This document shows, in pieces, positions 47,439 to 60,788 of a stretch of DNA of 64,000 bases (positions within the stretch are counted from its first letter, which is position 1; each line of letters begins with the position of its first letter). A model generated the notes under the pieces. That model was given only the letters and a program-made list of their open reading frames with translations. It made no database searches and had not been told where the DNA came from. This DNA comes from Desulfonauticus submarinus (GTDB lineage Bacteria > Desulfobacterota > Desulfovibrionia > Desulfovibrionales > Desulfonatronovibrionaceae). The DNA lies in contig NZ_FNIN01000001.1 in NCBI RefSeq assembly GCF_900104045.1, forward strand, positions 124,001 to 188,000. The letters are read 5' to 3'. Both the position numbers and the translations under genes were made by a program.

Positions 47439-50400
47439 ATGAAAATATTGAAAGATAAAAAACAATCTCTTTTATTCAGTCCATTAGGTATAAAAGGTAC
47501 CATGTATATGGTATGTACTGTTTTGCTTTTTTTTGATTTAGACGATCCAGATACTCTTTGTACAGAGCAAGAATTATGGCAAACTATACCACCTTTGCTA
47601 GGGAAGGGAAATGTTTTGGACATGAGCATGCCTAAACCACGAGGTGAATTTATTGTAATAGGCAAGTGTTTTACTCCTAGAGGAATTCCTGAACCCGCAT
47701 CTCAAGTGTCTGTACGTGTTGGTAATATAAAAAAAACTCTTTTTGTTTTTGGAAATAGATATTGGAAAAAGAGTTTAGGTGGTAAAGTCATTACTGATCC
47801 AGAGCCTTTTAAAGAAATGCCAATTACTTGGCAAAATGCTTTTGGGGGCAAAAAATATAAAAAAAATCCTCTTGGAAAGGGGATTGATCCTGTTGTTTTG
47901 CCTAATGGTAAAGAGGTTATACCTCTTCCCAATATTGAAGATCCAAAACATCTTATTGGTTCTCCTCTAGACAGGCCCGCCCCTATGAGTTTTGGGCCAA
48001 TAGATCTTATGTGGCCTCAGCGTTTTAAAAAACAAGGCACATATGATGAAAAATGGCTTAAAGAAAGATGGCCTTATTTTCCTGATGATATGAATTATGA
48101 GTTTTTTAATTGTGCCTCTGAAGATCAGTTTTTCCCAAAGTTTTTCAAAGGAGATGAATCCATTGAAATTGTTAATATGAATCCTGATATCCCGGTTTTA
48201 AAATCTCGACTTCCAGGGATAAGGGCTAGGTGTTTTGTTACAAAAAAGAAAAAGATTGACGCTCCTCCAGAGGAGGATAGTTTTGTTGAAGTTGAGATGC
48301 ATAGAGATACAGTATGGTTATTTCCTGAAATACGAAGAGGTATTCTTATTTTTCGAGGAACAACAGAAATTCAAGATGATGAATATGGCGATATAAGATG
48401 GATTTTTCTCAAAAATGAACAATTATCAGAGGAACCAAAACCGATTGAATATTATTTAGAAGAGCAAAAAAAACGGCTTGAACGGGGCGTTCCTATAGAT
48501 ACGGCTCCTTTTGAAGCAGCAAACCAAAAAATTGCTAAGGCTATAAAACGATTTAAATTTCTTCCTAAAGAAATTGAAGAAAAAAAATTAAAAATGATGG
48601 GTAAAAGACCCAAGATGCGCTATTCAGTGGACGAAATAGCAGAAAAGTCAATAAGTGATATAGAACAAAAAAGGGTTCTTTTGGATACGTTGGAAGCTAA
48701 AGCCAAGGAAATGCATGCCAAATGGGGGCATTTAGTAAAAATCCCTCTTGAGAAATTTGGGCAAATTAGAAATCATCTGGATACAATGAAAAAAAAGGTG
48801 CTTAAAACTGCTTCTCGAGTAAAAGAGATGCAGAAAGAGGCAAGTAAACAAAATGAAAAGGCAGCGAAAAATATAGCTCAATCAATTAGAGATAATGTAC
48901 CTGAAGATTTGCTTAAACAAACAGGAGTGGATCCAGATAATTTGATTCCTGAAGAAAAAAGAGAACCATGGCCAGGAAGAGGTTTTCCTCTTGTGATTCA
49001 ATGGCGTAAAAATCTTGAACGAAATAGAGAAGTTCAGGATAAGTTGAGAAAAATTGGATTTGAAAAAAGAACTCTTAAAAGGGCTTGGCTAGGTATAAAT
49101 AATGATCAAAAAATAGAAGATCCTGAGTGTTGGGGACTTGAATCAAAAGATGAAGAAAAAATAACAATACCCTCTGGTCTTGTTATTCCTCATTTTAGAG
49201 AAGCAACTCTTGTGCGTTTTTGGGTAAGACCTGATGAATATAATGATCCAAGCAATGATTTCCTTATGCCTGGATCAGATAGAGAGCCTTTATTTTTATC
49301 TGCTATTGATGATGAAGCTCCTATTATTAGAGTAGCTGATGAATTAGAAGCATGGCTTGTGGAACAAGAAGTAGGAGATGCTTGTTCAGTGGTAGTTCTA
49401 AGAGAGCCAGATGAAGAGCTTCCTGATGAAGTTAAGGAAGATATGGAAAAAGCACTTTGTTTTTTGGTGGTAGTTCCCAAAGATTTTCCTGAGGATAAAT
49501 GGGATAAGTGGAAAAAAGTGTATCCAGATGCTATTAGATTATATTTACCAAAAGGAGAAAATATTTTTGATTTAGTAAAAGAGAATATTGATATTAGAAA
49601 ATGGATTATGGATGCTTTGCCTTTGGAATTTGCAAAGGCACATTACTTAGAGCCTCTTTTGCTTGAGTCTGAAAAACCACCATCTCTTTCAGAAGGTTTT
49701 AAACTTCCGATGTTAAATGTTAAAGACATAGTTAATAATTTAATGAAAGAAATAAAAGCTTCTTATGAGCCAAAAATTAAGGAATTGGAACTAAGCAAAA
49801 TAGAAACAGAAAAAAAGATTAAAGATTCAGTTGTGGAGCAATTAGGAAAAGGTGCAGATAAGCTCGTTTCAAAAACAACAAAGCCTCCCAGTTTTGTTCA
49901 ATCTAGCAAAAATATCGCTAAAAGTATTAATAAACAAAAAAATGAACTAAGTTCCAAAGGATGTCTAACTCCTGAGATTGAGAAAAAAATGGATTCTGCC
50001 ACTCAAAAGGTTCTGCAGATGGGAGAAGAAGCAGAGGAAAAATATAAACAAGCAAAAACAAAAGCTGAAGCAGCTAAAGAAAAGTTAAACAAGCTTAAAG
50101 CTGGAGAAGTACCAGAGGAACTTAAGAAAAAATTTGAAAAGGCTGGAATTGATCCTAAACAATTAAAAAAGCTTACCAGAGAAGAAGTTATTGAAAAATA
50201 TCAAAAAAATCGCTCTCTTAAAGGAGCTATTCTTTCAGATCTTGATCTTTCAGGTCTTGATTTTGAAGGAATAGATCTCACAAATGCTCAATGTCGAAAA
50301 ACAAAATTTTGTAATTGTAATTTAAAAGGAGCTATATTTAATCAAACTCTTGCTAACGAGGCAGATTTTAGCGGAGCATTGCTGACAGAAGCAAATATGA

Positions 50401-51182
50401 AAAAAAGTGTATTTATAAAGGCAAAATTTAAAGAAACTATACTAAGAAATGCAAATATTTCGCAGGGGATATTTACAGAAGCAGATTTGGAAAAGACAGA
50501 TTTTACTAATTCTGTTTTAAAAATGAGCGTGTTTCAAAAAGCAAATATGAAAAAAATTCAATTTTCAGATGTATATGCATACATGTGTGTATTTACAGGT
50601 GCTGATCTAAGTGAAGTGGATTGTAAAAAGAGTAGACTTGAAAAGTGTCTTTTTAAGAAAACTTTGTTAAATAGAACAGATTTTTCCAAAGCATCATTTA
50701 ATTCCACTTTATTTTACGAAGCCTTAGGAGAGCAAGTAAAGTTTATTGGTGCTGATTTAAGTAAGGCAAGAATGGGTAAGAATGCTCAATTTTCTGGAGC
50801 AGATTTTAGAAATATTAAAATGCATCAAGGATGTTTTAGAGATTCAAATCTTTCAGACGCTTTGTTTCAGGGAAGTGAAATAGAAATGAGCATTTTTGAA
50901 GGCTGTGATCTTACAAAAACAGATTTTTATAGGGTAAAAGCTAAAAAAACCAGATTTATTAAATCTAATTTAGAAAGTGCTGATATGCGCGGTATAAATC
51001 TTTTTTTAGGTTCTCTTAGAAAAACAAGAATTGTAAATACTGATCTTAGGGGAGCTAATCTTTATGGAGTTGATTTTTATAAATCGATAATGGGAGATAC
51101 AAAGCTAGATGACTCAAATATTAAAAAGACTCTTATTGAAAAAAATTCTGAAATTTTGAAAAGTTGTTGTAAAAGTAGTTAA
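47439..51182 (+). CDS. DUF2169 - degenerate primase/Toprim-like - pentapeptide-repeat fusion protein 1
   Basis: 1,247 residues. (1) DUF2169, about 1-320 (SMPKPRGEFIVIGKCFTPRG, PITWQNAFGGKKYKKNPLGKG); this family occurs beside T6SS spike genes and is thought to act as an adaptor. (2) Helical linker, 330-500. (3) About 510-725: collinear with the core and Toprim domain of CHC2-type mobile-element primases (RKIGFEKRTLKRAWLG, PECWGL, SGLVIPHF, FLMPGS, ELEAWLVEQEVGDACSVVVL, IDIRKWIMDALP). The family catalytic Glu is Ala, and DxD is absent. (4) Coiled coil, 750-905. (5) Pentapeptide repeats, about 915-1,235. It may mount a PPR needle on VgrG. Weak ribosome-binding site. The primase resemblance rests on remembered family patterns, not an alignment. 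Confidence 0.75.
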   Translation: MKILKDKKQSLLFSPLGIKGTMYMVCTVLLFFDLDDPDTLCTEQELWQTIPPLLGKGNVLDMSMPKPRGEFIVIGKCFTPRGIPEPASQVSVRVGNIKKTLFVFGNRYWKKSLGGKVITDPEPFKEMPITWQNAFGGKKYKKNPLGKGIDPVVLPNGKEVIPLPNIEDPKHLIGSPLDRPAPMSFGPIDLMWPQRFKKQGTYDEKWLKERWPYFPDDMNYEFFNCASEDQFFPKFFKGDESIEIVNMNPDIPVLKSRLPGIRARCFVTKKKKIDAPPEEDSFVEVEMHRDTVWLFPEIRRGILIFRGTTEIQDDEYGDIRWIFLKNEQLSEEPKPIEYYLEEQKKRLERGVPIDTAPFEAANQKIAKAIKRFKFLPKEIEEKKLKMMGKRPKMRYSVDEIAEKSISDIEQKRVLLDTLEAKAKEMHAKWGHLVKIPLEKFGQIRNHLDTMKKKVLKTASRVKEMQKEASKQNEKAAKNIAQSIRDNVPEDLLKQTGVDPDNLIPEEKREPWPGRGFPLVIQWRKNLERNREVQDKLRKIGFEKRTLKRAWLGINNDQKIEDPECWGLESKDEEKITIPSGLVIPHFREATLVRFWVRPDEYNDPSNDFLMPGSDREPLFLSAIDDEAPIIRVADELEAWLVEQEVGDACSVVVLREPDEELPDEVKEDMEKALCFLVVVPKDFPEDKWDKWKKVYPDAIRLYLPKGENIFDLVKENIDIRKWIMDALPLEFAKAHYLEPLLLESEKPPSLSEGFKLPMLNVKDIVNNLMKEIKASYEPKIKELELSKIETEKKIKDSVVEQLGKGADKLVSKTTKPPSFVQSSKNIAKSINKQKNELSSKGCLTPEIEKKMDSATQKVLQMGEEAEEKYKQAKTKAEAAKEKLNKLKAGEVPEELKKKFEKAGIDPKQLKKLTREEVIEKYQKNRSLKGAILSDLDLSGLDFEGIDLTNAQCRKTKFCNCNLKGAIFNQTLANEADFSGALLTEANMKKSVFIKAKFKETILRNANISQGIFTEADLEKTDFTNSVLKMSVFQKANMKKIQFSDVYAYMCVFTGADLSEVDCKKSRLEKCLFKKTLLNRTDFSKASFNSTLFYEALGEQVKFIGADLSKARMGKNAQFSGADFRNIKMHQGCFRDSNLSDALFQGSEIEMSIFEGCDLTKTDFYRVKAKKTRFIKSNLESADMRGINLFLGSLRKTRIVNTDLRGANLYGVDFYKSIMGDTKLDDSNIKKTLIEKNSEILKSCCKSS

Positions 51183-51242: not shown

Positions 51243-53606
51243 GTGGCATATTTAAAGGATAAAAAATATTCTTTTATCTCCAGGGCTCTGGAAAAAGATA
51301 CTTTTGGTGTGGTGGAGTTTAAAGGTGAAGAAGGGTTAAGTAAGATTTACCGGTTTGAGATAACTTTGATTACAGATAGGTTAGATATTGATTTAAGTAG
51401 TGTTGTGCAGCATAGAGGAAAATTTATTATTCATAGAGATGGTGGAGATGATGTTAGTTTTAATGGTATTATATCCAATTTTGAGCAACTGCAAAAGATT
51501 AATGAATATGTGTTTTATAGAGCCATTTTAGTCCCTAAATTATGGTATTTAACTCTTACTCATCACAATCAAGTGTTTCTTAATAAAAATGTGCAAGAGA
51601 TTTTGAAATTGGTATTAGAGGATGCTGGGCTTACAGAAGTAGACTATGAATTTCGCTTACAAGAAGAGTATAAACCTTTGGAGTATGTTTGTCAGTATGG
51701 AGAAAGCCATTTTGATTTTATCAGTAGATGGTGTGAACGAGAAGGTATATATTATTTTTTTGAACAAGGAGATGAAAAAGAAAAGGTAATATTTACAGAT
51801 ACTTTTATATCACATACTGAAAATCCCAAAGGGAAGAGAGTAATATATTCACCTCCATCAGGACTTGGAGCAGGACATAGAAATGAAATAGTGCAAGGGT
51901 TTATATGTAGATATAATACATTGCCTAAAAAAGTTTTATTAAGAGATTATAATTATAGAAAGCCTTCGTTAGAAGTTGTAGGAAGTGCAGAAATAGATCC
52001 AAAAGGTATAGGAGACGTATATTATTATGGAGATCACTTTAGAACTCCACAAGAAGGAAATCGTCTTGCTCAGATAAGAGCAGAAGAGCTTTTGTGCAGA
52101 AGAGAGGAATTTATAGGAGATAGTACGGTTCCTTATTTACAACCTGGTTATATTTTTGAGCTAGAAAATCATTATCGTAAAAATTTTAATCAGCGTTATC
52201 TTACCATTGAACTAAGCCATGAAGGTAGCCAAACAGGTTATTTGGTAAGTGGGATTCAAGATGATCTCTCAGATCGTGAAAAACAGGTATTTTATAGGAA
52301 TAATTTTACAGCAATTCCTGCAAATGTACAATTTCGTCCTAAGAGAATGACAAAAAATCCCAAAATAGTTGGCACGTTAAATGCCAGAATAGATGCATCT
52401 GGGAGTGGCAAATATGCAGAGCTAGATGAAGAAGGTAGATATAAAGTGATATTGCCTTTTGATATATCGGGCAGAAAAGATGGTAAGGCCTCAGCATGGA
52501 TAAGGATGTTGCAACCTTATGCAGGAAATAACCATGGCATGCATTTTCCTTTACATAAGGGCACAGAGGTTCTTTTAACCTTTATAGATGGCAATCCAGA
52601 TCGCCCAGTAATCGCAGGAGCTGTGCCCAATCCTGAGACCCCTTCTCTTGTAACAGCAGAGAATCAAACTACTTGTCAAATTACCACTGGCGGGGGCAAT
52701 ACAATTCATATGGAGGATCAAGAAGGAAAACAAAGGATATTATTTCACAGCCCTACTGCTAATACTTCTATTAGGCTTGGAGCTTCTGGAAATCCATTTA
52801 AGGATTTGGAAAATAATGTTATAAAACAATATAAAGCAGTTGAAGGGGTTTTAAAAAATAGTGGTGGAGATGGAGATGATGACAAGGATAAAGATTATGA
52901 AGATGTCTGGGGTAAAGTGCTGGCAGAAAGAGATGGACTTAAAATAGATACTGGCGCAAGTTTAGAGATGAGGGTCGGCGGAGTAAAAGCAGAAGTAGTA
53001 GGAGGATCAGATACATCAATAGTTATTGGAAATTCTAATGATGTATTGTTAGGTGGAAAGGTAGATATTCATGTTCCTGAAAAATGGATTTATGAAAAAA
53101 GTAAGGTAGAGAGTACGGTTAAAGAAGTGAAGTTAAAAATAAAAAAAGTTACACAAATTCAAAATAATATAAATATGATACAAAACAAAATAAATATTAT
53201 TCAGGAAAAAAAAGAAATAAATGAAAAATCTATTAGCAATATTGGTACTGAAACAAAAATAGCTAAGGCCAAAGAAGAAATTGTTAAAGAAATGTATAGT
53301 ATGTTTGATGTTCTTTCTAAAAAAATAAAGGAAGAAATAAAACGTGTAGAAACTAGATTTAAGCAAGTAAAACAAGAAATTAATGAAATAGAAACAGAAA
53401 TTTCTGATACAAAGAAAAAAATATCAAAAGTTGAAAAAAATATATTTAAGTTTAGTGATCAAATTATAGACGGAGGTAAAAAGATTTCAGAAATAGGCAC
53501 TTATATTCAAAAAACAGAAAAGATAGATATAAATAAAGCTGGAAATATGATAGCACAAGCAGGTCAAATAATAGCAAAGGCTAGTAGCTCTATATTTTTA
53601 AATTAA
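51243..53606 (+). CDS. vgrG: T6SS spike VgrG (TssI), copy 2, with C-terminal coiled coil
   Basis: 787 residues from a GTG at 51243, six bases after AAGGAGGT. The gp27-like and OB-fold domains are clear (GRYKVILPFDISG, DGNPDRPVIAGAVPNPE). A beta stalk (TGASLEMRVGGVKAEVVGG, IVIGNSNDVLLGGKVDIHV) comes next, then about 155 residues of Lys/Glu/Ile-rich coiled coil (IQNNINMIQNKINIIQEKK, KEEIKRVETRFKQVKQEINE). The N-terminal sequence is clearly a different lineage from VgrG 1 and 3. It sits between the two giant DUF2169-PPR genes and is probably the partner of one of them. Confidence 0.94.
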   Translation: MAYLKDKKYSFISRALEKDTFGVVEFKGEEGLSKIYRFEITLITDRLDIDLSSVVQHRGKFIIHRDGGDDVSFNGIISNFEQLQKINEYVFYRAILVPKLWYLTLTHHNQVFLNKNVQEILKLVLEDAGLTEVDYEFRLQEEYKPLEYVCQYGESHFDFISRWCEREGIYYFFEQGDEKEKVIFTDTFISHTENPKGKRVIYSPPSGLGAGHRNEIVQGFICRYNTLPKKVLLRDYNYRKPSLEVVGSAEIDPKGIGDVYYYGDHFRTPQEGNRLAQIRAEELLCRREEFIGDSTVPYLQPGYIFELENHYRKNFNQRYLTIELSHEGSQTGYLVSGIQDDLSDREKQVFYRNNFTAIPANVQFRPKRMTKNPKIVGTLNARIDASGSGKYAELDEEGRYKVILPFDISGRKDGKASAWIRMLQPYAGNNHGMHFPLHKGTEVLLTFIDGNPDRPVIAGAVPNPETPSLVTAENQTTCQITTGGGNTIHMEDQEGKQRILFHSPTANTSIRLGASGNPFKDLENNVIKQYKAVEGVLKNSGGDGDDDKDKDYEDVWGKVLAERDGLKIDTGASLEMRVGGVKAEVVGGSDTSIVIGNSNDVLLGGKVDIHVPEKWIYEKSKVESTVKEVKLKIKKVTQIQNNINMIQNKINIIQEKKEINEKSISNIGTETKIAKAKEEIVKEMYSMFDVLSKKIKEEIKRVETRFKQVKQEINEIETEISDTKKKISKVEKNIFKFSDQIIDGGKKISEIGTYIQKTEKIDINKAGNMIAQAGQIIAKASSSIFLN

Positions 53607-53670
53607 CTCCTATAGGATTATGTATAAAGCGAGTAGATACTGTTTATACTATAATAAAGGGTGATTGGTT

Positions 53671-56600
53671 GTGAGAGTTATAAAAGATATTCATCATGGT
53701 TTACTTTTAAATCGATTTGAAATTGAGAATAAGTGTTATTTGGTTATAAGTATTCTTATCTTTTTTGACTTTGATAAGCCAAATTATCCTTTAAGTGAAC
53801 AAGAAATGTGGAAATTTGTTCAATCTTATTTGGGGAAAGAAGCTATTCTTGACTCTGGAATGCCCAAGATAAAAGGAGAAATAATCGTTTATGGTAGTTG
53901 TTTTCCTCCAGAAGGGACTGCTAAGGTATCAACAGTTGGCTTTGGTATAAAAGGAATTAGAAAAAAGTTGGCTGTATTTGGAGATCGTTTTTGGGAGAGA
54001 AAGGGTGGTATTAGTATTATTAGTGAGCCTAAGCCCTTTAAAGAAATGCCTATTACTTGGGACAGGGCTTTTGGTGGAAAAGAGTATAAAATGAATCCAT
54101 TAGGAAAGGGTATAGATCCTGTTATTCTTCCTAATGGTAGAGAGATAGTTCCTTTACCTAATTTAGAAGACCCTGATCATTTAATAGGATCGCCAGCAGA
54201 TAGACCAAATCCTATTTGCTTTGCCCCCATTGATATGATGTGGCCTCAGCGTTTTAAAAAGCAAGGGACTTATGATAAAAAATGGCTTAGAGAAAGATGG
54301 CCCTTTTATCCTGAGGACATGGACTGGAGTTTTTTTAATTGTGCATCGGAGGATCAACAAAGGGATGGTTTTTTTAGAGGGGGAGAGGAGTTTTTTATTG
54401 AGAACATGCATCCTGAGAGGCCCAAAATAGTCTCCCAAATTCCTGCTCTTAGACAGAAATGTTTTGTTAATAAACTTAAAGACTTAGATAATCCAGAAGG
54501 AGAGACTTTATTTCAAGAAGTAGAAACCAAAATAGATACCCTTATTTTATTTCCTCATGCGTTAAAAGGTATTGCTCTTTGGAGAGGCACTGTAGAAGTG
54601 TTAGATGATGAGGCGCTTGATGTGCTTCATATATTTGTTGCTACAGAGAATTTATTGGATAATGCTAAGGATATAGATTATTATTATAAAATTTTTCAAA
54701 AAAAGCGAAAAGGAGAAATAGATGATCTTCCTGAGGTTCAGGAAGCAGAAGTCATGCTTAAAAAAGCTGAAAAGGAATTGGAAATAGCCAAAAAAGAGCT
54801 AAAAGAACTGCCTAAAAAAATAAATGATTCAATTTTAAGAGGGCTTGGAGAAAGGCCAAAGCAATCTTTTACTCCTAATGAAATAATAAAATCAGCTTTA
54901 GAAAACATAGAAAACTCAGAGCAATTTTTTGGAAAGACAGAGTTGGACTTGCAAGGACTTAGAGAGGAATTTGGGCATATAGTTAAGATTGAATCAATAA
55001 ATATGAAAAATACTATGCAAGAAAATATAGGAAAAATTAAAGAAACGGTAAAAACTTTTGGACAAGAACTTAATGCTATAAATAAAAATGTGCAAGCCTC
55101 AAAAGAGGAAATTAAGTCAAAATTTGAAGCTGGTTTAAAAGGAGGAATAAAAGATAAGATAGTTGAAATAAAGGATTTTTTAGATTTTCTTGATAAAAAA
55201 GAAGATCCGTGGCTTTTATCAGGAATGGAGTTTTTACAAGAATGTCGTCTTCAGCTTCTTAAAGATAAAGAAAAGATGGAGATTCTGACTAAAATAGGTT
55301 TTTCTGACTATACTGTAAAGTGGGCATGGTTGGGTTTTAATCAAAAAGACCGACAATATAAGGGTAGTTTATGGGGGCTTGACCAAGAGGAGATTTTTAT
55401 ACCTAAAGGTTTGGTCATACCTTATTTTGAAAAGGACACTCTTAAAAAACTTGTTATAAGGCCAGATATAATACCAGATAATTCAAAAGATGTTTTAGTC
55501 CCTGGTTCTAAAGAAAAAAATTATCTGCTTTCAACTGCAGTAGTAGAAGGCATTGTAGTTGTGGTAAAGGAAGAATTTGAAGCATTGCTTTTACATCAGG
55601 AAATTTGGGATATAGCTTTGGTGGTTGTTATTAGTAATCCTAAAGAAGAGGTGGATAAAAATACTGAGTCTTTGCTTCAACAGGCGTCTTGTATTTTGAT
55701 CCCTGAATATTCAGTAGACTATATTCAGGCATGTAAAGAAAAATTTTCACAATTAGATTCTATTGTAATGCCAGACAAAATTAATAATATTATTTTAATG
55801 AAATCTAAAAATATAGACCTTCGGAAATGGTTTTTGAGCGTGATAAGACCAGATATAAAGAAAGAACTTATTGATTTAGCCAAAGCAGAGAATATTAATC
55901 TTGAAGAAGAATTTTTATTTAGCTTTGATTTAGTATCTAAAAGAGTTAACAATGTTATAAAAAAAGATACAAATACAGAAAAAATTGAAGAATTAAAAAA
56001 TTTAAAAAATGAAATAATTGCTAATATAAAAGATAAACTTAGAAAAATTGGCGTGTCTGATAAAACTTTAGAAGATATTACTAAAGACTCAGAAGAAAGT
56101 AAAAAATCCTCAGAAGAGTTTATTTTTTCTGCTAGAGAAAAATTAAGTCATATTATCAAAAAAACTAAAATGAAATTAGAATCTTCAGGTTTTTTAACAG
56201 AAAATTCTAAAAAAATTCTAGAAGAAATAGAAAATACTCATTTAAATGCATTACAAAATGCACAGGTAAAACTACAAGACGCAAAGCAAAAAATTCAAAA
56301 TACTGAAGAGTTATTTTCTAAAACAGATTATAAACCTAATTGGGCTAAGGAATTGATAGCAGATAATATAAAGTTAAAAGAATATTATGAAAAACTCACT
56401 AGAGAAAAAGTCATTGAACTTTATAATAAAGGTGAAAGCTTTGCAGGAAAAGACATTTCTGGTGTAGATTTATCTAGACTTCATTTAGATGGTGCAGATT
56501 TTAGTTCATCTTTGCTTGAAGGTACAATTTTTAAAGAATCATCTCTTAATAATGCAAATTTTAGTAAAGCAATCGCTAGTAATACAGATTTTTCAAATGC

Positions 56601-57390
56601 ATCTTTGGAAAATGCCAATTTGGAAAAAGGTATTTTTGATAATGCAAAATTTATAAATGCTAATCTTAGAGGAGCTAATCTTAGAGAGGTGTTTGCAGAA
56701 AAAGCAGATTTTGAAGGAGCAGATATTTCTAAGGCAGATCTTCAAGGAATATCTTTTATTGAGGCAAAATTAAAAGGGATTAAGGGAAAAGAGATTAAAG
56801 CTGATGGTGGAGTATTTTTGCAAGTTGAGGCCTCAAAAGGAATATTTACTGGTGCTGATTTTAAAAAAGCTTTATTTTCTAAGGCATCATTAGAAGAAAG
56901 TGATTTTTCTGAAAGTAAAGTTTGCTCTACTATATTTACAGAGGTAAAGGCAAATAAGACAAAGTTTATTAAAGCAGACCTTTATAATAGTAGAATTATT
57001 AATAAATCTGATTTTTCAGAATCAGATTTTGTGGGAGCAAAGGCAAATAGATCTTGTTGGATGAAGTCAAAGTTATCTGATTCTGATTTTAAAGGTAGTT
57101 TGCTTGATCAAACATTGGTTCAGGAGTGTGATGTTTCTAGAAGTTCTTTGAGAGGTGTATGCGCTAAGAAAGCTCGTTTTGAAAGGTCTGATTTTTCAAA
57201 ATCAGATATGGAGGGAATAAATCTCTTTCAAGGTTCGCTTCGGAAAGCAAGACTTAATAATACAAATTTAAAAAAGGCAAACCTTTATGGAGTAGAATTT
57301 TATAAAACAAAGGTAAAAAATATAAATTTAGAAAATACAAACCTTAAAAAAACAAAACTTGAAGGAAGAGAGCAGACTATCCATGACTAG
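53671..57390 (+). CDS. DUF2169 - degenerate primase/Toprim-like - pentapeptide-repeat fusion protein 2
   Basis: 1,239 residues from the GTG at 53671, nine bases after AAGGG; the TTG at 53665 is too close to that site. Architecture and spacing are the same as in the protein at 47439. DUF2169 covers about 1-320 (SGMPKIKGEIIVYGSCFPPEG, PITWDRAFGGKEYKMNPLGKG). The primase/Toprim-like region spans about 510-720 (LTKIGFSDYTVKWAWLGF, SLWGLDQEEIFIPKGLVIPYF, VLVPGS, EEFEALLLHQEIWD, NIDLRKWF). The catalytic Glu position is Lys and DxD is lost. A coiled coil (750-895) and a pentapeptide beta-helix (about 915-1,235, GADFSSSLLEGTIF, NANLRGANL) complete it. The linker regions have diverged more than the end domains. 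The next gene starts inside its last codons. Confidence 0.75.
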   Translation: MRVIKDIHHGLLLNRFEIENKCYLVISILIFFDFDKPNYPLSEQEMWKFVQSYLGKEAILDSGMPKIKGEIIVYGSCFPPEGTAKVSTVGFGIKGIRKKLAVFGDRFWERKGGISIISEPKPFKEMPITWDRAFGGKEYKMNPLGKGIDPVILPNGREIVPLPNLEDPDHLIGSPADRPNPICFAPIDMMWPQRFKKQGTYDKKWLRERWPFYPEDMDWSFFNCASEDQQRDGFFRGGEEFFIENMHPERPKIVSQIPALRQKCFVNKLKDLDNPEGETLFQEVETKIDTLILFPHALKGIALWRGTVEVLDDEALDVLHIFVATENLLDNAKDIDYYYKIFQKKRKGEIDDLPEVQEAEVMLKKAEKELEIAKKELKELPKKINDSILRGLGERPKQSFTPNEIIKSALENIENSEQFFGKTELDLQGLREEFGHIVKIESINMKNTMQENIGKIKETVKTFGQELNAINKNVQASKEEIKSKFEAGLKGGIKDKIVEIKDFLDFLDKKEDPWLLSGMEFLQECRLQLLKDKEKMEILTKIGFSDYTVKWAWLGFNQKDRQYKGSLWGLDQEEIFIPKGLVIPYFEKDTLKKLVIRPDIIPDNSKDVLVPGSKEKNYLLSTAVVEGIVVVVKEEFEALLLHQEIWDIALVVVISNPKEEVDKNTESLLQQASCILIPEYSVDYIQACKEKFSQLDSIVMPDKINNIILMKSKNIDLRKWFLSVIRPDIKKELIDLAKAENINLEEEFLFSFDLVSKRVNNVIKKDTNTEKIEELKNLKNEIIANIKDKLRKIGVSDKTLEDITKDSEESKKSSEEFIFSAREKLSHIIKKTKMKLESSGFLTENSKKILEEIENTHLNALQNAQVKLQDAKQKIQNTEELFSKTDYKPNWAKELIADNIKLKEYYEKLTREKVIELYNKGESFAGKDISGVDLSRLHLDGADFSSSLLEGTIFKESSLNNANFSKAIASNTDFSNASLENANLEKGIFDNAKFINANLRGANLREVFAEKADFEGADISKADLQGISFIEAKLKGIKGKEIKADGGVFLQVEASKGIFTGADFKKALFSKASLEESDFSESKVCSTIFTEVKANKTKFIKADLYNSRIINKSDFSESDFVGAKANRSCWMKSKLSDSDFKGSLLDQTLVQECDVSRSSLRGVCAKKARFERSDFSKSDMEGINLFQGSLRKARLNNTNLKKANLYGVEFYKTKVKNINLENTNLKKTKLEGREQTIHD

Positions 57391-58450
57391 AGAAGAACTT
57401 CTTGAAGCTATAAAAAGAGATGAGACTATAGAAAATCAAGATTTACGAGGTATGGATTTACGAGGTCTTGATTTTACTGGGGTTAGATTTGAGAATGTGG
57501 ATTTTAGTGGTGCTGATTTAAGAGATTGTAAGATCAAGAAGACTGGTTTTAATGGATGTAAATTTCAGGATACTATAATGGAAGGAGCTGATCTTACTGA
57601 AGTGATTTGGATAGAGATAGATTTAAGTGGAGTTAAGTTGAATAATGCAGTACTTAGTGAAGCTGTATTGATTGAGGTAAAACTTAAAGGAGCTGAATTA
57701 AGATTTGGAAATTTGAAGAATATAATTATAAATGATTCAGATTTGGAAGGGATAGATTTAGAAAATAGTAATCTTTCCAGAGCAGTATTAACTAGGGTTA
57801 ATTTAAAGGGTGCTAATTTAAGTGGAACTGATCTTTCTCACACTATTTTTACTCAGGTTGATTTTCAAAATACTGTACTTAGAGGGGCTAAAATATTTAA
57901 AACTTTTATGCGAGATTCTTTTTTGCAAGGACAAGACTTTAGTGGATGTAAGTTTATAATGGCTCAAGTAGGTGGTTCTGATTTAAAAGGTTGTAACTTT
58001 AAAAAGGCTGATATTTCTCAATCGAATTTTTTAAATGCTAATTTGGAAGAGGTAAACTTTGAAAATACCACAGCTAGGCGAACTGTGTTTATGGGAGCAA
58101 AGTTAGAGCGAGCAATATTTAGAAAGGCTGATCTTTTTCAGGCATGTTTTGATGAAGGAGTAGTTACTCTAGTTGATTTTTCTGATGCTAATTTAGAGCA
58201 ATCAAGATTTGTTTGTGCTAAATGTGTTTCTACTTCTTTTAAAGGTGCTAATTGTTCCTATGTGGATTTTTCATATGCTAATTTAAAGTCTGCAGATTTA
58301 TCGTTTGCCAATCTTTATTGGGCTAAGATGCATAAAACAGAAGTGGATGGAGTGGTTTGGGATAAATCCATAGGACGTTCATCTATAAGGTGGACAGATA
58401 AGGATTTGGCAGAAGCAGAAAATTGGAAATCAAGTTTAAATATAGATTAA
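57383..58450 (+). CDS. Free pentapeptide-repeat protein 2 (T6SS spike cassette)
   Basis: 355 residues. The ATG at 57383 overlaps the previous stop by eight bases and gives MTREELLEAIKRDETIEN, aligned with the start of the first free PPR protein; a frame opening at 57359 is not needed. Nearly all of the chain is pentapeptide repeats (GADLRDCKI, GANLSGTDLSHTIF, DANLEQSRFVCA). A C-cap (WTDKDLAEAENWK) closes it. Translational overlap with the DUF2169-PPR gene implies related function, perhaps stacking on or competing with the fused PPR domain. Function unknown. Confidence 0.85.
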   Translation: MTREELLEAIKRDETIENQDLRGMDLRGLDFTGVRFENVDFSGADLRDCKIKKTGFNGCKFQDTIMEGADLTEVIWIEIDLSGVKLNNAVLSEAVLIEVKLKGAELRFGNLKNIIINDSDLEGIDLENSNLSRAVLTRVNLKGANLSGTDLSHTIFTQVDFQNTVLRGAKIFKTFMRDSFLQGQDFSGCKFIMAQVGGSDLKGCNFKKADISQSNFLNANLEEVNFENTTARRTVFMGAKLERAIFRKADLFQACFDEGVVTLVDFSDANLEQSRFVCAKCVSTSFKGANCSYVDFSYANLKSADLSFANLYWAKMHKTEVDGVVWDKSIGRSSIRWTDKDLAEAENWKSSLNID

Positions 58451-58490: not shown

Positions 58491-59153
58491 ATGGAGAGTA
58501 TAGCAAAAATAATGGATAACACAGAATCAATATCAATGATGGAAGCAGGTAAGATAATAGAAGTAAAAGGAGAAATTTTTTCTGTAATTACTTCTTTTGG
58601 ATATTTTAAGGCTAAAAAAGCTGAAACTTGTCTTATTACTCCAATGAAAGGAGATAAGGTTTTATTGTATGCTGATGGCACAGAACCTGCTTATATTTTG
58701 GCTATACTTGAACGCAGTAAAGAATCGTTTTCTCCAAGAGAAGTTGCTTTTGAAGGTTCTGTTGAAATAGTTTCTAAAAAAGGGAATCTTAATATACGGT
58801 CTATGGAAAATATTAAAATTTTATCTTCAAATGAAGTTTTAATTAGTTCTGAAGATTTTAATCTCAGTGCTCGAAGAGGAAATTTTTTACTGAACCACTT
58901 TAAGTTTTTAGGTAATATATTTGAGGCAAAAGTGCAAAAAATAAAGGCAATGGCAGATAGCGTGGATTCAATATTTAAGAGAATGGTTCAAAGATTGAAA
59001 TCTTCTTATCGTTATATAACAGGGCATGAAGAGGTACAGGCAAAATCTATGAGAACTTTAGTTGATGAAGCAATGATAGTTCAAACAAAAAATACAATTC
59101 ATAGAGCTAAAGAGAATATTAAGATAGATGCCTCTCAGATTCACATGGGTTAA
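58491..59153 (+). CDS. DUF3540 protein 1 (T6SS spike-associated)
   Basis: 220 residues. The DUF3540 family lies next to DUF2169, DUF4150 and VgrG genes in T6SS loci. About residues 15-75 look like a small OB-type barrel (GKIIEVKGEIFSVITSFG, CLITPMKGDKVLLYADG). Then repetitive short strands follow (GSVEIVSKKGNLNIRSMENIKILS), resembling the OB-fold plus beta-helix stalk of VgrG but without the gp27 part. The end (MIVQTKNTIHRAKENIKIDASQIHMG) is again strand-rich. Likely a structural adaptor between VgrG and the PAAR-like protein encoded 16 bases downstream (inference). AAAAGGAG precedes the ATG. Confidence 0.78.
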   Translation: MESIAKIMDNTESISMMEAGKIIEVKGEIFSVITSFGYFKAKKAETCLITPMKGDKVLLYADGTEPAYILAILERSKESFSPREVAFEGSVEIVSKKGNLNIRSMENIKILSSNEVLISSEDFNLSARRGNFLLNHFKFLGNIFEAKVQKIKAMADSVDSIFKRMVQRLKSSYRYITGHEEVQAKSMRTLVDEAMIVQTKNTIHRAKENIKIDASQIHMG

Positions 59154-59169
59154 AAAAGGAGGTTTGTAG

Positions 59170-59577
59170 ATGTTTCTTTTGTCCACAGAGGGTGGGAAAA
59201 ATGTTGGCACTCCAGATGTATGCAACACTCCTGCTGCTGCAGGTGCACCTGTTCCAACTCCTTATGTAAATATTTCAGATTGTGCTACAAGCAATCCTTC
59301 CACAGTTGCTCAAAGTGTTTTTGCTTCAGGAATGCCTTCTGTAAATTTAAGCACAGAGATACCTCTTAGTAATGGTGATGAAGCAGGTACTCAAATGGGA
59401 GTGGTTTCAGGTGAAATTATGGGTCTTACTCGTTTTCAATCAGGAAGCACAAAAGTATTTATTGAGGGTTCTCCAGCTCAAAGATTAACGAGTTCTACTG
59501 GGCAAAACGGTAGTAATATGAATTGCTTAGGGACTACAGTTGCTCCAGGTCAGACTATTGTGATGATACTTAGTTAA
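59170..59577 (+). CDS. DUF4150 PAAR-like spike-tip protein 1
   Basis: 135 residues. PDVCNTPAAAGAPVPTPYVNI at the start, GDEAGTQMGVVSGEIMG in the middle and SPAQRLTSSTGQNG near the end are the DUF4150 pattern, a PAAR-like family that sharpens the VgrG tip. No C-terminal effector extension is present, unlike many DUF4150 effectors. Paired with the DUF3540 gene upstream; the pair is repeated at 59668-60788. Confidence 0.88.
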   Translation: MFLLSTEGGKNVGTPDVCNTPAAAGAPVPTPYVNISDCATSNPSTVAQSVFASGMPSVNLSTEIPLSNGDEAGTQMGVVSGEIMGLTRFQSGSTKVFIEGSPAQRLTSSTGQNGSNMNCLGTTVAPGQTIVMILS

Positions 59578-59667
59578 CTTTTACTTTGATAATCAACAAG
59601 ATGACTTTTTGCCCTCATTTAAGGAGTTTTTAGGTATTTATTTGCAAACCTATTTTTAGGAGGAGTA

Positions 59668-60324
59668 ATGGATAATCTGGCAAGAAATTTAGATATCTCT
59701 TATGTGGCTATGGAATATGGAAAGGTCGTTTCTCTTAAAGAAGAGGCTTATCTAGTTAGGACTGATTTTGGAGAAGTAGTGTCAGAAAAGGCAGTAAGTT
59801 GCTTGGTTCAGCCTCAGGAGGGAGATGTGGTTTTACTTACTGTAGGTAGTAAAGGTGAATCCTTTATTTTGTCTGTTTTAAAGAGAAAAAATGAAAAAAA
59901 ACAAAAAACAGAAATTGCTTTTAAAGGTAATGTGAGTTTTAATATAAAAGATGGAGAATTTTCTTTAGCTGCTGATAAAAACATTTCTTTAGCTACAAAT
60001 GAGAATATGATGTTGGCTTCAGATAAAATTTCAGTTCATGCCAATAAAGGAGAGGCATCTATAGAAAAGTTTTCCTTTATTGGAAATTTTTTTCATACCC
60101 AAGTGAAGCGATTTAAAATGGTAGCTATTTCTGTAGAGAATATATGTCGCAGATTTACCCAAAGAGTAAAAGATTCTTTTCGTTTTGTAGAAGATTTAGA
60201 TGAAGTCCAAACCGGCTCAGCTAGATACCTTGTGAAAGATACACTTACCATGCAATCTAAAGATGCAGTTCACATGGCAGAGGAGATTGTTACCATAAAT
60301 GCAGAACAGATTCATTTAGGATAA
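59668..60324 (+). CDS. DUF3540 protein 2 (T6SS spike-associated)
   Basis: 218 residues, paralogous to the protein at 58491 over its whole length (YGKVVSLKEEAYLVRTDFGEV, SCLVQPQEGDVVLLTVGS, FKGNVSFNIKDGEFSLAADKN, and the ending INAEQIHLG against IDASQIHMG). The OB-like barrel and beta-strand repeats are conserved, the middle helix region (HTQVKRFKMVAISVENICRRF) less so. AGGAGGAG precedes the ATG. Duplication as a unit with DUF4150 is evident. Confidence 0.78.
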   Translation: MDNLARNLDISYVAMEYGKVVSLKEEAYLVRTDFGEVVSEKAVSCLVQPQEGDVVLLTVGSKGESFILSVLKRKNEKKQKTEIAFKGNVSFNIKDGEFSLAADKNISLATNENMMLASDKISVHANKGEASIEKFSFIGNFFHTQVKRFKMVAISVENICRRFTQRVKDSFRFVEDLDEVQTGSARYLVKDTLTMQSKDAVHMAEEIVTINAEQIHLG

Positions 60325-60383
60325 TTGAAGAAATTACACAAAGTGTTTCCAAAGGATAAACCCGAAAAAAAGGAGAAAATATT

Positions 60384-60788
60384 ATGTTTATGCTTAGTAT
60401 GGGAGCAGGAATGGATCTGGGGTTTCCAGATGTTTGCCTGACTCCTTCAGTTAATGGCACTGTAAGCATACCATATCCAGATATGGCTATGACTGCTACA
60501 AGTACTCCAGCAGCTTATAATGTGTTGGTAGATTGTATGCCTGTAGTCAATCAACTATCTATGGGACTTATGAGTAATGGAGATGAGGGTGGTGTAATGG
60601 GCGGTGTTTCTTCTCATCTTATTGATGGACAAGCTACTTATAAAGTTGGTTGTTTTACTATTTTAGTAGATGGAATGCCAGCACAAAGGCTTACTAGTGT
60701 TACAGGACAAAATTCTTTGGGTATGTCTCCTAATGCTCCAGGTTTATGTCTTCTTCCTAGCCAAGTAACAGTGTTGACGTTGGGTTAA
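60384..60788 (+). CDS. DUF4150 PAAR-like spike-tip protein 2
   Basis: 134 residues, paralogous to the protein at 59170 (FPDVCLTPSVNGTVSIPYPD, SNGDEGGVMGGVSSHLIDG, GMPAQRLTSVTGQNS). It probably caps a different VgrG or chooses between cargos. No effector domain attached. AAAGGAG lies just before the ATG. A 146-base gap without clear signals follows before the third VgrG. Confidence 0.88.
   Translation: MFMLSMGAGMDLGFPDVCLTPSVNGTVSIPYPDMAMTATSTPAAYNVLVDCMPVVNQLSMGLMSNGDEGGVMGGVSSHLIDGQATYKVGCFTILVDGMPAQRLTSVTGQNSLGMSPNAPGLCLLPSQVTVLTLG

What the first reader, a model, noticed from the sequence alone, without database searches (positions are those of the whole stretch)
55195..55850. Second primase/Toprim-like insert with independently altered active site
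The paralogous fusion has the same collinear landmarks at the same residue numbers (about 510-720): LTKIGFSDYTVKWAWLGF, SLWGLDQEEIFIPKGLVIPYF, VLVPGS, EEFEALLLHQEIWD, IDLRKWF. Preceding residues (EFLQECRLQLLKDKEK) also echo the helix before the primase core. The catalytic Glu is Lys here (Ala in the other copy) and DxD is absent. Two paralogs keep the fold landmarks while losing catalysis in different ways. That argues for selection on structure, not residual decay.
Basis: partly seen in the sequence, partly recalled or inferred. Interest (0 to 1): 0.75.

Follow-up and report, generated by a model that had tools for sequence, protein, structure and literature searches.

The report
Dead primase domain in T6SS chaperone
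A protein that helps bacteria assemble the tip of their type VI secretion "harpoon" carries, in its middle, a whole DNA-copying (primase) domain that was captured once, lost its catalytic residues and has been kept as a folded, non-catalytic part across several bacterial phyla.

Summary
Window 55195-55850 encodes aa 511-728 of a 1241-aa T6SS protein (53665-57390). It is a real but degenerate DnaG-type primase domain (Toprim_N plus Toprim). The profile match to CHC2 zinc-finger primases has E 1.5e-35. AlphaFold gives pLDDT 87, and Foldseek's best PDB hits are all DnaG or Twinkle. The host protein is DUF2169 - coiled coil - pseudo-primase - coiled coil - pentapeptide repeats, beside VgrG, PPR, DUF3540 and PAAR-like genes: the TvpAB protein of a class III Tvp spike-assembly cluster (PMC13373197). 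I found 22 such fusions in Desulfobacterota, Acidobacteriota and other MAGs. They form one clade against 32 primases (100/100), so the domain was captured once. All 22 lack key Toprim aspartates, whereas the W/G/P framework is kept. dN/dS of the domain is 0.22-0.32 in close ortholog pairs. No library model or paper found describes the domain. Its role is inferred: a protein-binding scaffold in the VgrG-PAAR cap.

The parts
53665..57390 (+). TvpAB-type T6SS accessory protein P0002 (1241 aa): DUF2169 - coiled coil - pseudo-primase - coiled coil - pentapeptide repeats
53737..54585 (+). DUF2169 domain (aa 25-307), the PAAR-chaperone module in characterised relatives
   Evidence: Pfam PF09937, E 9.6e-82; function from PMC11883445 and PMC13373197
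55201..55845 (+). Pseudo-primase domain (Toprim_N-like plus Toprim-like, aa 513-727)
   Evidence: hhalign against CHC2 primases E 1.5e-35; AlphaFold pLDDT 87.3, pTM 0.84; Foldseek 2au3 E 3.9e-6, 4edg 1.3e-5, 7t8b 4.6e-5
55567..55569 (+). Codon of Lys635 at the position of the invariant Toprim glutamate
   Evidence: E in 32/32 primases, in 1/22 fusions
55579..55581 (+). Codon of Glu639 at the position of the second invariant Toprim acid (Asp in primases)
   Evidence: D in 32/32 primases, 0/22 fusions
55708..55710 (+). Codon of Tyr682 at the first Asp of DxD
   Evidence: D in 32/32 primases, 0/22 fusions, mostly Pro in fusions
47439..51182 (+). Paralogous TvpAB-type protein P0001 (1247 aa), same architecture
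48966..49622 (+). Pseudo-primase domain of P0001 (aa ~510-728; Glu site is Ala633)
51243..53606 (+). VgrG preceding P0002
   Evidence: Pfam Phage_GPD E 2e-78
57359..58450 (+). Stand-alone pentapeptide-repeat protein (TvpB-like)
   Evidence: position as in PMC13373197
46356..47411 (+). Stand-alone pentapeptide-repeat protein (TvpB-like) before P0001
58491..59153 (+). DUF3540 protein (TvpC-like)
   Evidence: PF12059 E 1.4e-53
59170..59577 (+). PAAR-like protein
   Evidence: PF13665 E 2e-31
59668..60324 (+). Second DUF3540 protein (TvpC-like)
   Evidence: PF12059 E 2.7e-55
60384..60788 (+). Second PAAR-like protein
   Evidence: PF13665 E 9.7e-34

Best explanation
The insert is a DnaG-type primase domain, captured once from a mobile CHC2 zinc-finger primase and placed in the middle of the helical linker of a T6SS TvpAB protein. 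It lost catalysis in the common ancestor of the fusions and was kept as a folded, non-catalytic module. In its host protein the DUF2169 part chaperones the PAAR-like tip, and the linker and pentapeptide repeats wrap the TvpC or VgrG beta-prism. The pseudo-primase most likely serves there as a protein-binding or scaffold module of the spike-loading cap, either extending its contacts along the long VgrG prism or docking cargo. Shown here: homology, predicted fold, single origin, loss of active site, purifying selection and gene context. Inferred from characterised relatives: the role of the host protein. Inferred only: the scaffold or docking role of the insert.
For: Homology and fold. Donor-type relatives carry CHC2/Zn_Ribbon_Prim and often Toprim_2, and occur on viral contigs. 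One clade of 22 fusions, 100/100. Catalytic columns lost, framework kept; fusion-specific replacements such as Ser to Asp beside the Glu site and DxD Asp to Pro. dN/dS 0.22-0.32. The insert diverges less than both coiled-coil linkers and about as much as the pentapeptide repeats (ratio to DUF2169: 1.47 against 1.77, 1.90 and 1.36). Mean net charge is -4.1 per 100 aa against +0.6 in primases (p 1.5e-8), which argues against nucleic-acid binding. The VgrG-TvpAB-TvpB-DUF3540-PAAR gene set recurs across phyla, with small variations. Role of TvpAB: PMC13373197 and PMC11883445.
Against: No experiment touches the insert. Other TvpAB proteins, some in the same genomes, have no such domain, so it is not a general requirement of the cap. 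The placement of the domain relative to DUF2169 is undetermined (pTM 0.45). The DUF2169 tree needs at least three gains or losses of the insert, so later losses or domain exchange must be assumed.
Confidence: 0.66

Rival explanations
1. The domain still binds nucleotides or nucleic acid without catalysis (a Twinkle-like case) and gives the T6SS cap a regulatory or cargo-binding function.
For: Twinkle is a precedent for a retained dead primase domain (PMC9723800) and is among the nearest folds. The conserved Arg of the RIRIRR strand is kept in 17/22 fusions.
Against: Net charge has become strongly negative. The Tyr before PGS is replaced by Asp/Glu in 17/22 and the KD motif is lost. The rest of the locus is a protein-secretion machine.
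Confidence: 0.12
2. The domain is a passive leftover: a spacer with no specific role that is only kept from misfolding.
For: P0002's insert is on the longest branch (1.85) and has lost family-conserved residues, such as a Trp that is Cys here and the Gly of the GD motif that is Trp here. dN/dS is higher than in DUF2169. Short TvpAB proteins lack it.
Against: Kept across phyla with conserved residues unique to fusions, less divergent than the flanking linkers, dN/dS well below 1, and open frames in the full-length copies (the one exception, G057, has a locus broken throughout).
Confidence: 0.17
3. The domain is an active primase or nuclease-like effector part delivered with the spike.
For: The fold is that of a Toprim enzyme, and one fusion (G002) keeps the Glu.
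Against: The first DxD Asp and the second Toprim Asp are absent in all 22, and there is no CHC2 zinc finger. Secretion of TvpAB was never detected in Serratia (PMC13373197).
Confidence: 0.02
4. The resemblance is chance or low-complexity similarity between coiled-coil-rich proteins.
For: No Pfam model matches the insert.
Against: hhalign 1.5e-35 over 228 columns, independent fold match, and genome-scale searches that returned primases and fusions.
Confidence: 0.01

Closest known systems
TvpAB of class III Tvp complexes (Serratia marcescens Db10 SMDB11_2247; EMBO J 2026, PMC13373197)
   Same: DUF2169 at the N-terminus, helices in the middle, pentapeptide repeats at the C-terminus; beside VgrG, TvpB, DUF3540 TvpC and a DUF4150/PAAR-like protein.
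   Different: The window proteins carry an additional ~215-aa pseudo-primase domain inside the helical middle. The paper's main text does not contain the words Toprim or primase.
CHC2 zinc-finger mobile primases (Zn_Ribbon_Prim plus Toprim_2; PHROG 849/47)
   Same: Same domain from the helix before the core (W...), WGL, P.GLVIP, R, PGS, ELDA, EQE.GD to the final DIRxW; collinear over 228 columns.
   Different: The fusions lack the zinc finger, the DxD, the second Toprim acid and the KD motif, and are strongly acidic.
Vertebrate Twinkle N-terminal domain
   Same: A Toprim-family primase domain with mutated active site and no detected primase activity, retained in a larger protein (PMC9723800).
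   Different: Twinkle stays in DNA replication, attached to a helicase; here the domain sits in a secretion-system chaperone.
DUF2169 chaperones VP1398, Tap2/Atu3641, PA0097 (PMC11883445, PMC13373197)
   Same: Same N-terminal domain.
   Different: Mostly single-domain proteins without pseudo-primase or pentapeptide repeats.

Membership tests
Toprim/DnaG-type primase | Primase core fold (Toprim_N plus Toprim) | tested here: met
   AlphaFold pLDDT 87, Foldseek 2au3/4edg/5guj TM 0.57-0.65
Toprim/DnaG-type primase | Catalytic glutamate | tested here: not met
   Lys635 here, Ala633 in paralog; E in 1/22 fusions, 32/32 primases
Toprim/DnaG-type primase | DxD motif and second Toprim Asp | tested here: not met
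   first DxD Asp 0/22, second Toprim Asp 0/22; second DxD column 18% D in a gappy stretch of the alignment
Toprim/DnaG-type primase | N-terminal CHC2 / primase zinc ribbon | tested here: not met
   no zinc-ribbon match in P0001/P0002; present in the primase relatives
Toprim/DnaG-type primase | Primer synthesis | not testable with these tools
   needs biochemistry
TvpAB (Tvp class III) | N-terminal DUF2169 | tested here: met
   PF09937 E 9.6e-82
TvpAB (Tvp class III) | C-terminal pentapeptide repeats | tested here: met
   PF00805 E 6.3e-39
TvpAB (Tvp class III) | Neighbouring VgrG, TvpB, DUF3540 (TvpC), PAAR-like genes | tested here: met
TvpAB (Tvp class III) | Forms pre-complex with TvpB-TvpC-PAAR and then VgrG | not testable with these tools
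   shown for S. marcescens only (PMC13373197)
Twinkle-like dead primase | Fused to a hexameric helicase | tested here: not met
   no helicase domain in the protein

The most novel reading that the evidence does not exclude
An undescribed domain family: a DnaG-type primase domain that was turned into a non-catalytic docking platform in T6SS spike chaperones of class III, defining a subclass of Tvp complexes in which the pseudo-primase recognises a specific VgrG prism or cargo.
Probability: 0.5. Interest if true: 0.75.

Novelty: new variant of a known kind. Interest (0 to 1): 0.6.

Why it matters
It shows a replication enzyme domain recruited, once, into a secretion-machine chaperone and kept after losing its active site, across several phyla. 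It gives a natural experiment on what Toprim folds can do without catalysis. It also defines an unrecognised subclass of Tvp spike-assembly proteins with a testable extra contact surface. The domain is invisible to Pfam and NCBIfam, so present annotation shows only DUF2169 and pentapeptide repeats.

Tried and rejected
Pfam and NCBIfam scans of the insert and PHROGs found nothing relevant. The profile of the fusions found no primase in PDB by sequence, whereas the profile of the primases did. dN/dS of the window pair is near saturation and was set aside in favour of close orthologs. No match to the insert in plasmids, none to the primase domain in phage records, and no fusion in viral contigs. 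Downstream genes of fusion clusters show no obvious shared effector that would hint at cargo, judged from ORF lists only. The longer context model has pTM 0.45, so domain placement was not interpreted. Papers joining T6SS or DUF2169 with primase or Toprim: none relevant found.

Full report
What is at the coordinates. Window 55195-55850 lies inside one open reading frame, 53665-57390 (+), of 1241 aa. Its paralog, 47439-51182, has 1247 aa and is 38% identical over the full length. Pfam recognises DUF2169 at the N-terminus and pentapeptide repeats at the C-terminus of both, and nothing convincing in the 600 aa between. The Toprim glutamate position is Lys635 here and Ala633 in the paralog (the P0001 residue numbers printed are three too high, one search gives the right frame).

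It is a primase domain. Searching the 218 aa in 60 related genomes gave mainly two kinds of hit: proteins of ~1250-1320 aa and proteins of ~380-510 aa. The long ones repeat the whole architecture. The short ones are CHC2 or Zn_Ribbon_Prim primases, several with a Toprim_2 match. An alignment of ten inserts against seven primase domains gives hhalign probability 99.9, E 1.5e-35, 228 collinear columns from the helix before the core to the final DIRxW. AlphaFold models the insert of P0002 with mean pLDDT 87.3 and pTM 0.84. The best PDB matches are Aquifex DnaG (2au3, E 3.9e-6), S. aureus DnaG (4edg, 4e2k), human Twinkle (7t8b) and B. subtilis DnaG (5guj), with TM-scores 0.57-0.65 normalised by the query. 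In the viral library the named matches are mostly phage primases. In a longer context model (aa 3-909) the domain is still an ordered alpha/beta island between long helices, but the relative placement of domains is not determined (pTM 0.45).

Where it sits. The genes from 27210 to 63736 are a T6SS locus: TssJ, K, L, M, A, B, C, Hcp, F, G, ClpV, then VgrG, PPR, P0001, VgrG, P0002, PPR, DUF3540, PAAR-like, DUF3540, PAAR-like, VgrG. This is the gene set of class III Tvp complexes described in Serratia marcescens: TvpAB (DUF2169 plus PPR), TvpB (PPR), TvpC (DUF3540) and a DUF4150/PAAR-like protein (PMC13373197). There the DUF2169 part shields the hydrophobic PAAR surface, TvpAB helices surround the TvpC prism, and the cap is then passed to VgrG. 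DUF2169 as chaperone of a PAAR-like domain is also shown in Vibrio (PMC11883445).

How common it is. Where enough flanking DNA is held, the neighbours are VgrG, TvpB-like, DUF3540 and PAAR-like genes, with small variations such as a different gene order in G001 and no detected DUF3540 next to the L077 copy. In the 395-genome sample 24 genomes have DUF2169 and five of them carry the insert. Other TvpAB-like proteins of 737-973 aa, some in the same genomes, have no detectable insert. The parts of the long linker before and after the insert each match the short linker weakly (E 2.9e-5 and 4.4e-6; both are coiled coil, so this is suggestive only), while the insert does not (E 0.1), as expected if the domain was placed into an existing helical linker.

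One capture, one loss. A tree of 54 domains separates 22 fusions from 32 primases on one branch with support 100/100. Columns conserved in primases split cleanly. The catalytic Glu is kept in 1/22 fusions, the second Toprim Asp in 0/22, the first DxD Asp in 0/22, the second DxD column in 18% (gappy), Lys and Asp of the KD motif in 9% each, and Tyr before PGS in 0/22. Trp516, Gly545, Trp570, Gly582, Gly614 and Ala640 (P0002 numbering) are kept in 22/22. Replacements are shared among fusions: the DxD Asp is Pro in 17/22, the Tyr is Asp/Glu in 17/22, the residue after the Glu is Asp in 19/22. This fits loss in the common ancestor followed by drift of the Glu site (A7, P5, G3, T2, H, E, K and others). 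The DUF2169 tree puts P0001 with same-genus proteins and P0002 with proteins of other families; G033, in another family, has a member near each. So the paralogs are old and probably did not lose catalysis separately. The DUF2169 tree needs at least three gains or losses of the insert; together with the single insert clade this means loss or domain exchange after one capture.

Selection. In eight ortholog pairs the domain's dN/dS is 0.22-0.32 with upper 95% bounds of 0.33 to 0.55; DUF2169 in the same pairs has 0.05-0.18, and linkers and repeats mostly lie between or alongside. For the window pair synonymous sites are near saturation, so 0.69 (0.43-1.05) is not interpretable. By mean distance the insert diverges less than both coiled-coil linkers and about as much as the repeats. 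P0002 is the extreme case: end branch 1.85 in the insert tree against 0.53 in the DUF2169 tree, with some family-conserved residues gone. Its insert may be under weaker or different constraint than the rest of the family.

What it does. The change from neutral to acidic (-4.1 against +0.6 net charges per 100 aa), the loss of catalytic and neighbouring conserved residues, and a context of protein-secretion genes point to a protein-binding role in the spike-loading cap. Nothing here identifies the partner. The clusters end at a stand-alone PAAR-like gene and show no obvious shared effector downstream.

Novelty. Dead primase domains are known (vertebrate Twinkle, PMC9723800), and TvpAB is known. 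Their combination was not found in the papers searched, and no library used here has a model for it. I file it as a new variant of a known kind.

Noticed in passing
L066:1733-3667 (G000:C1:187733-189667), at and past the window's right end: A third DUF2169-pentapeptide protein of 645 aa with a shortened, divergent DUF2169 part and no pseudo-primase, in the same T6SS neighbourhood.
   Followed up: partly
L020:4996-6015 (G002): A 340-aa protein matching both pentapeptide repeats and DUF3540, next to a 112-aa pentapeptide fragment: an apparent TvpB-TvpC fusion.
   Followed up: no
L026 (G057:C16): The whole T6SS locus of this genome is broken into short frames, including its DUF2169-insert gene; more likely assembly errors than decay, not resolved. 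Its insert seems to keep the Glu (VVWVEDEIEG).
   Followed up: no
window 58491-60788: Two DUF3540/PAAR-like pairs stand side by side. PAAR-like proteins of most fusion clusters resemble the second one; those beside the P0002-like copies (G033a, L075) resemble both about equally, which suggests each TvpAB paralog may have its own pair.
   Followed up: partly
L027, L029-L034, L082, L157-L162: A family of CHC2 zinc-finger primases is widespread in Desulfobacterota and present on IMG/VR contigs; the likely donor pool of the captured domain.
   Followed up: partly
window 55870-56380 (second coiled coil of P0002): G+C drops to 0.23 (third positions 0.11) against 0.29-0.36 in the rest of the gene.
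   Followed up: no
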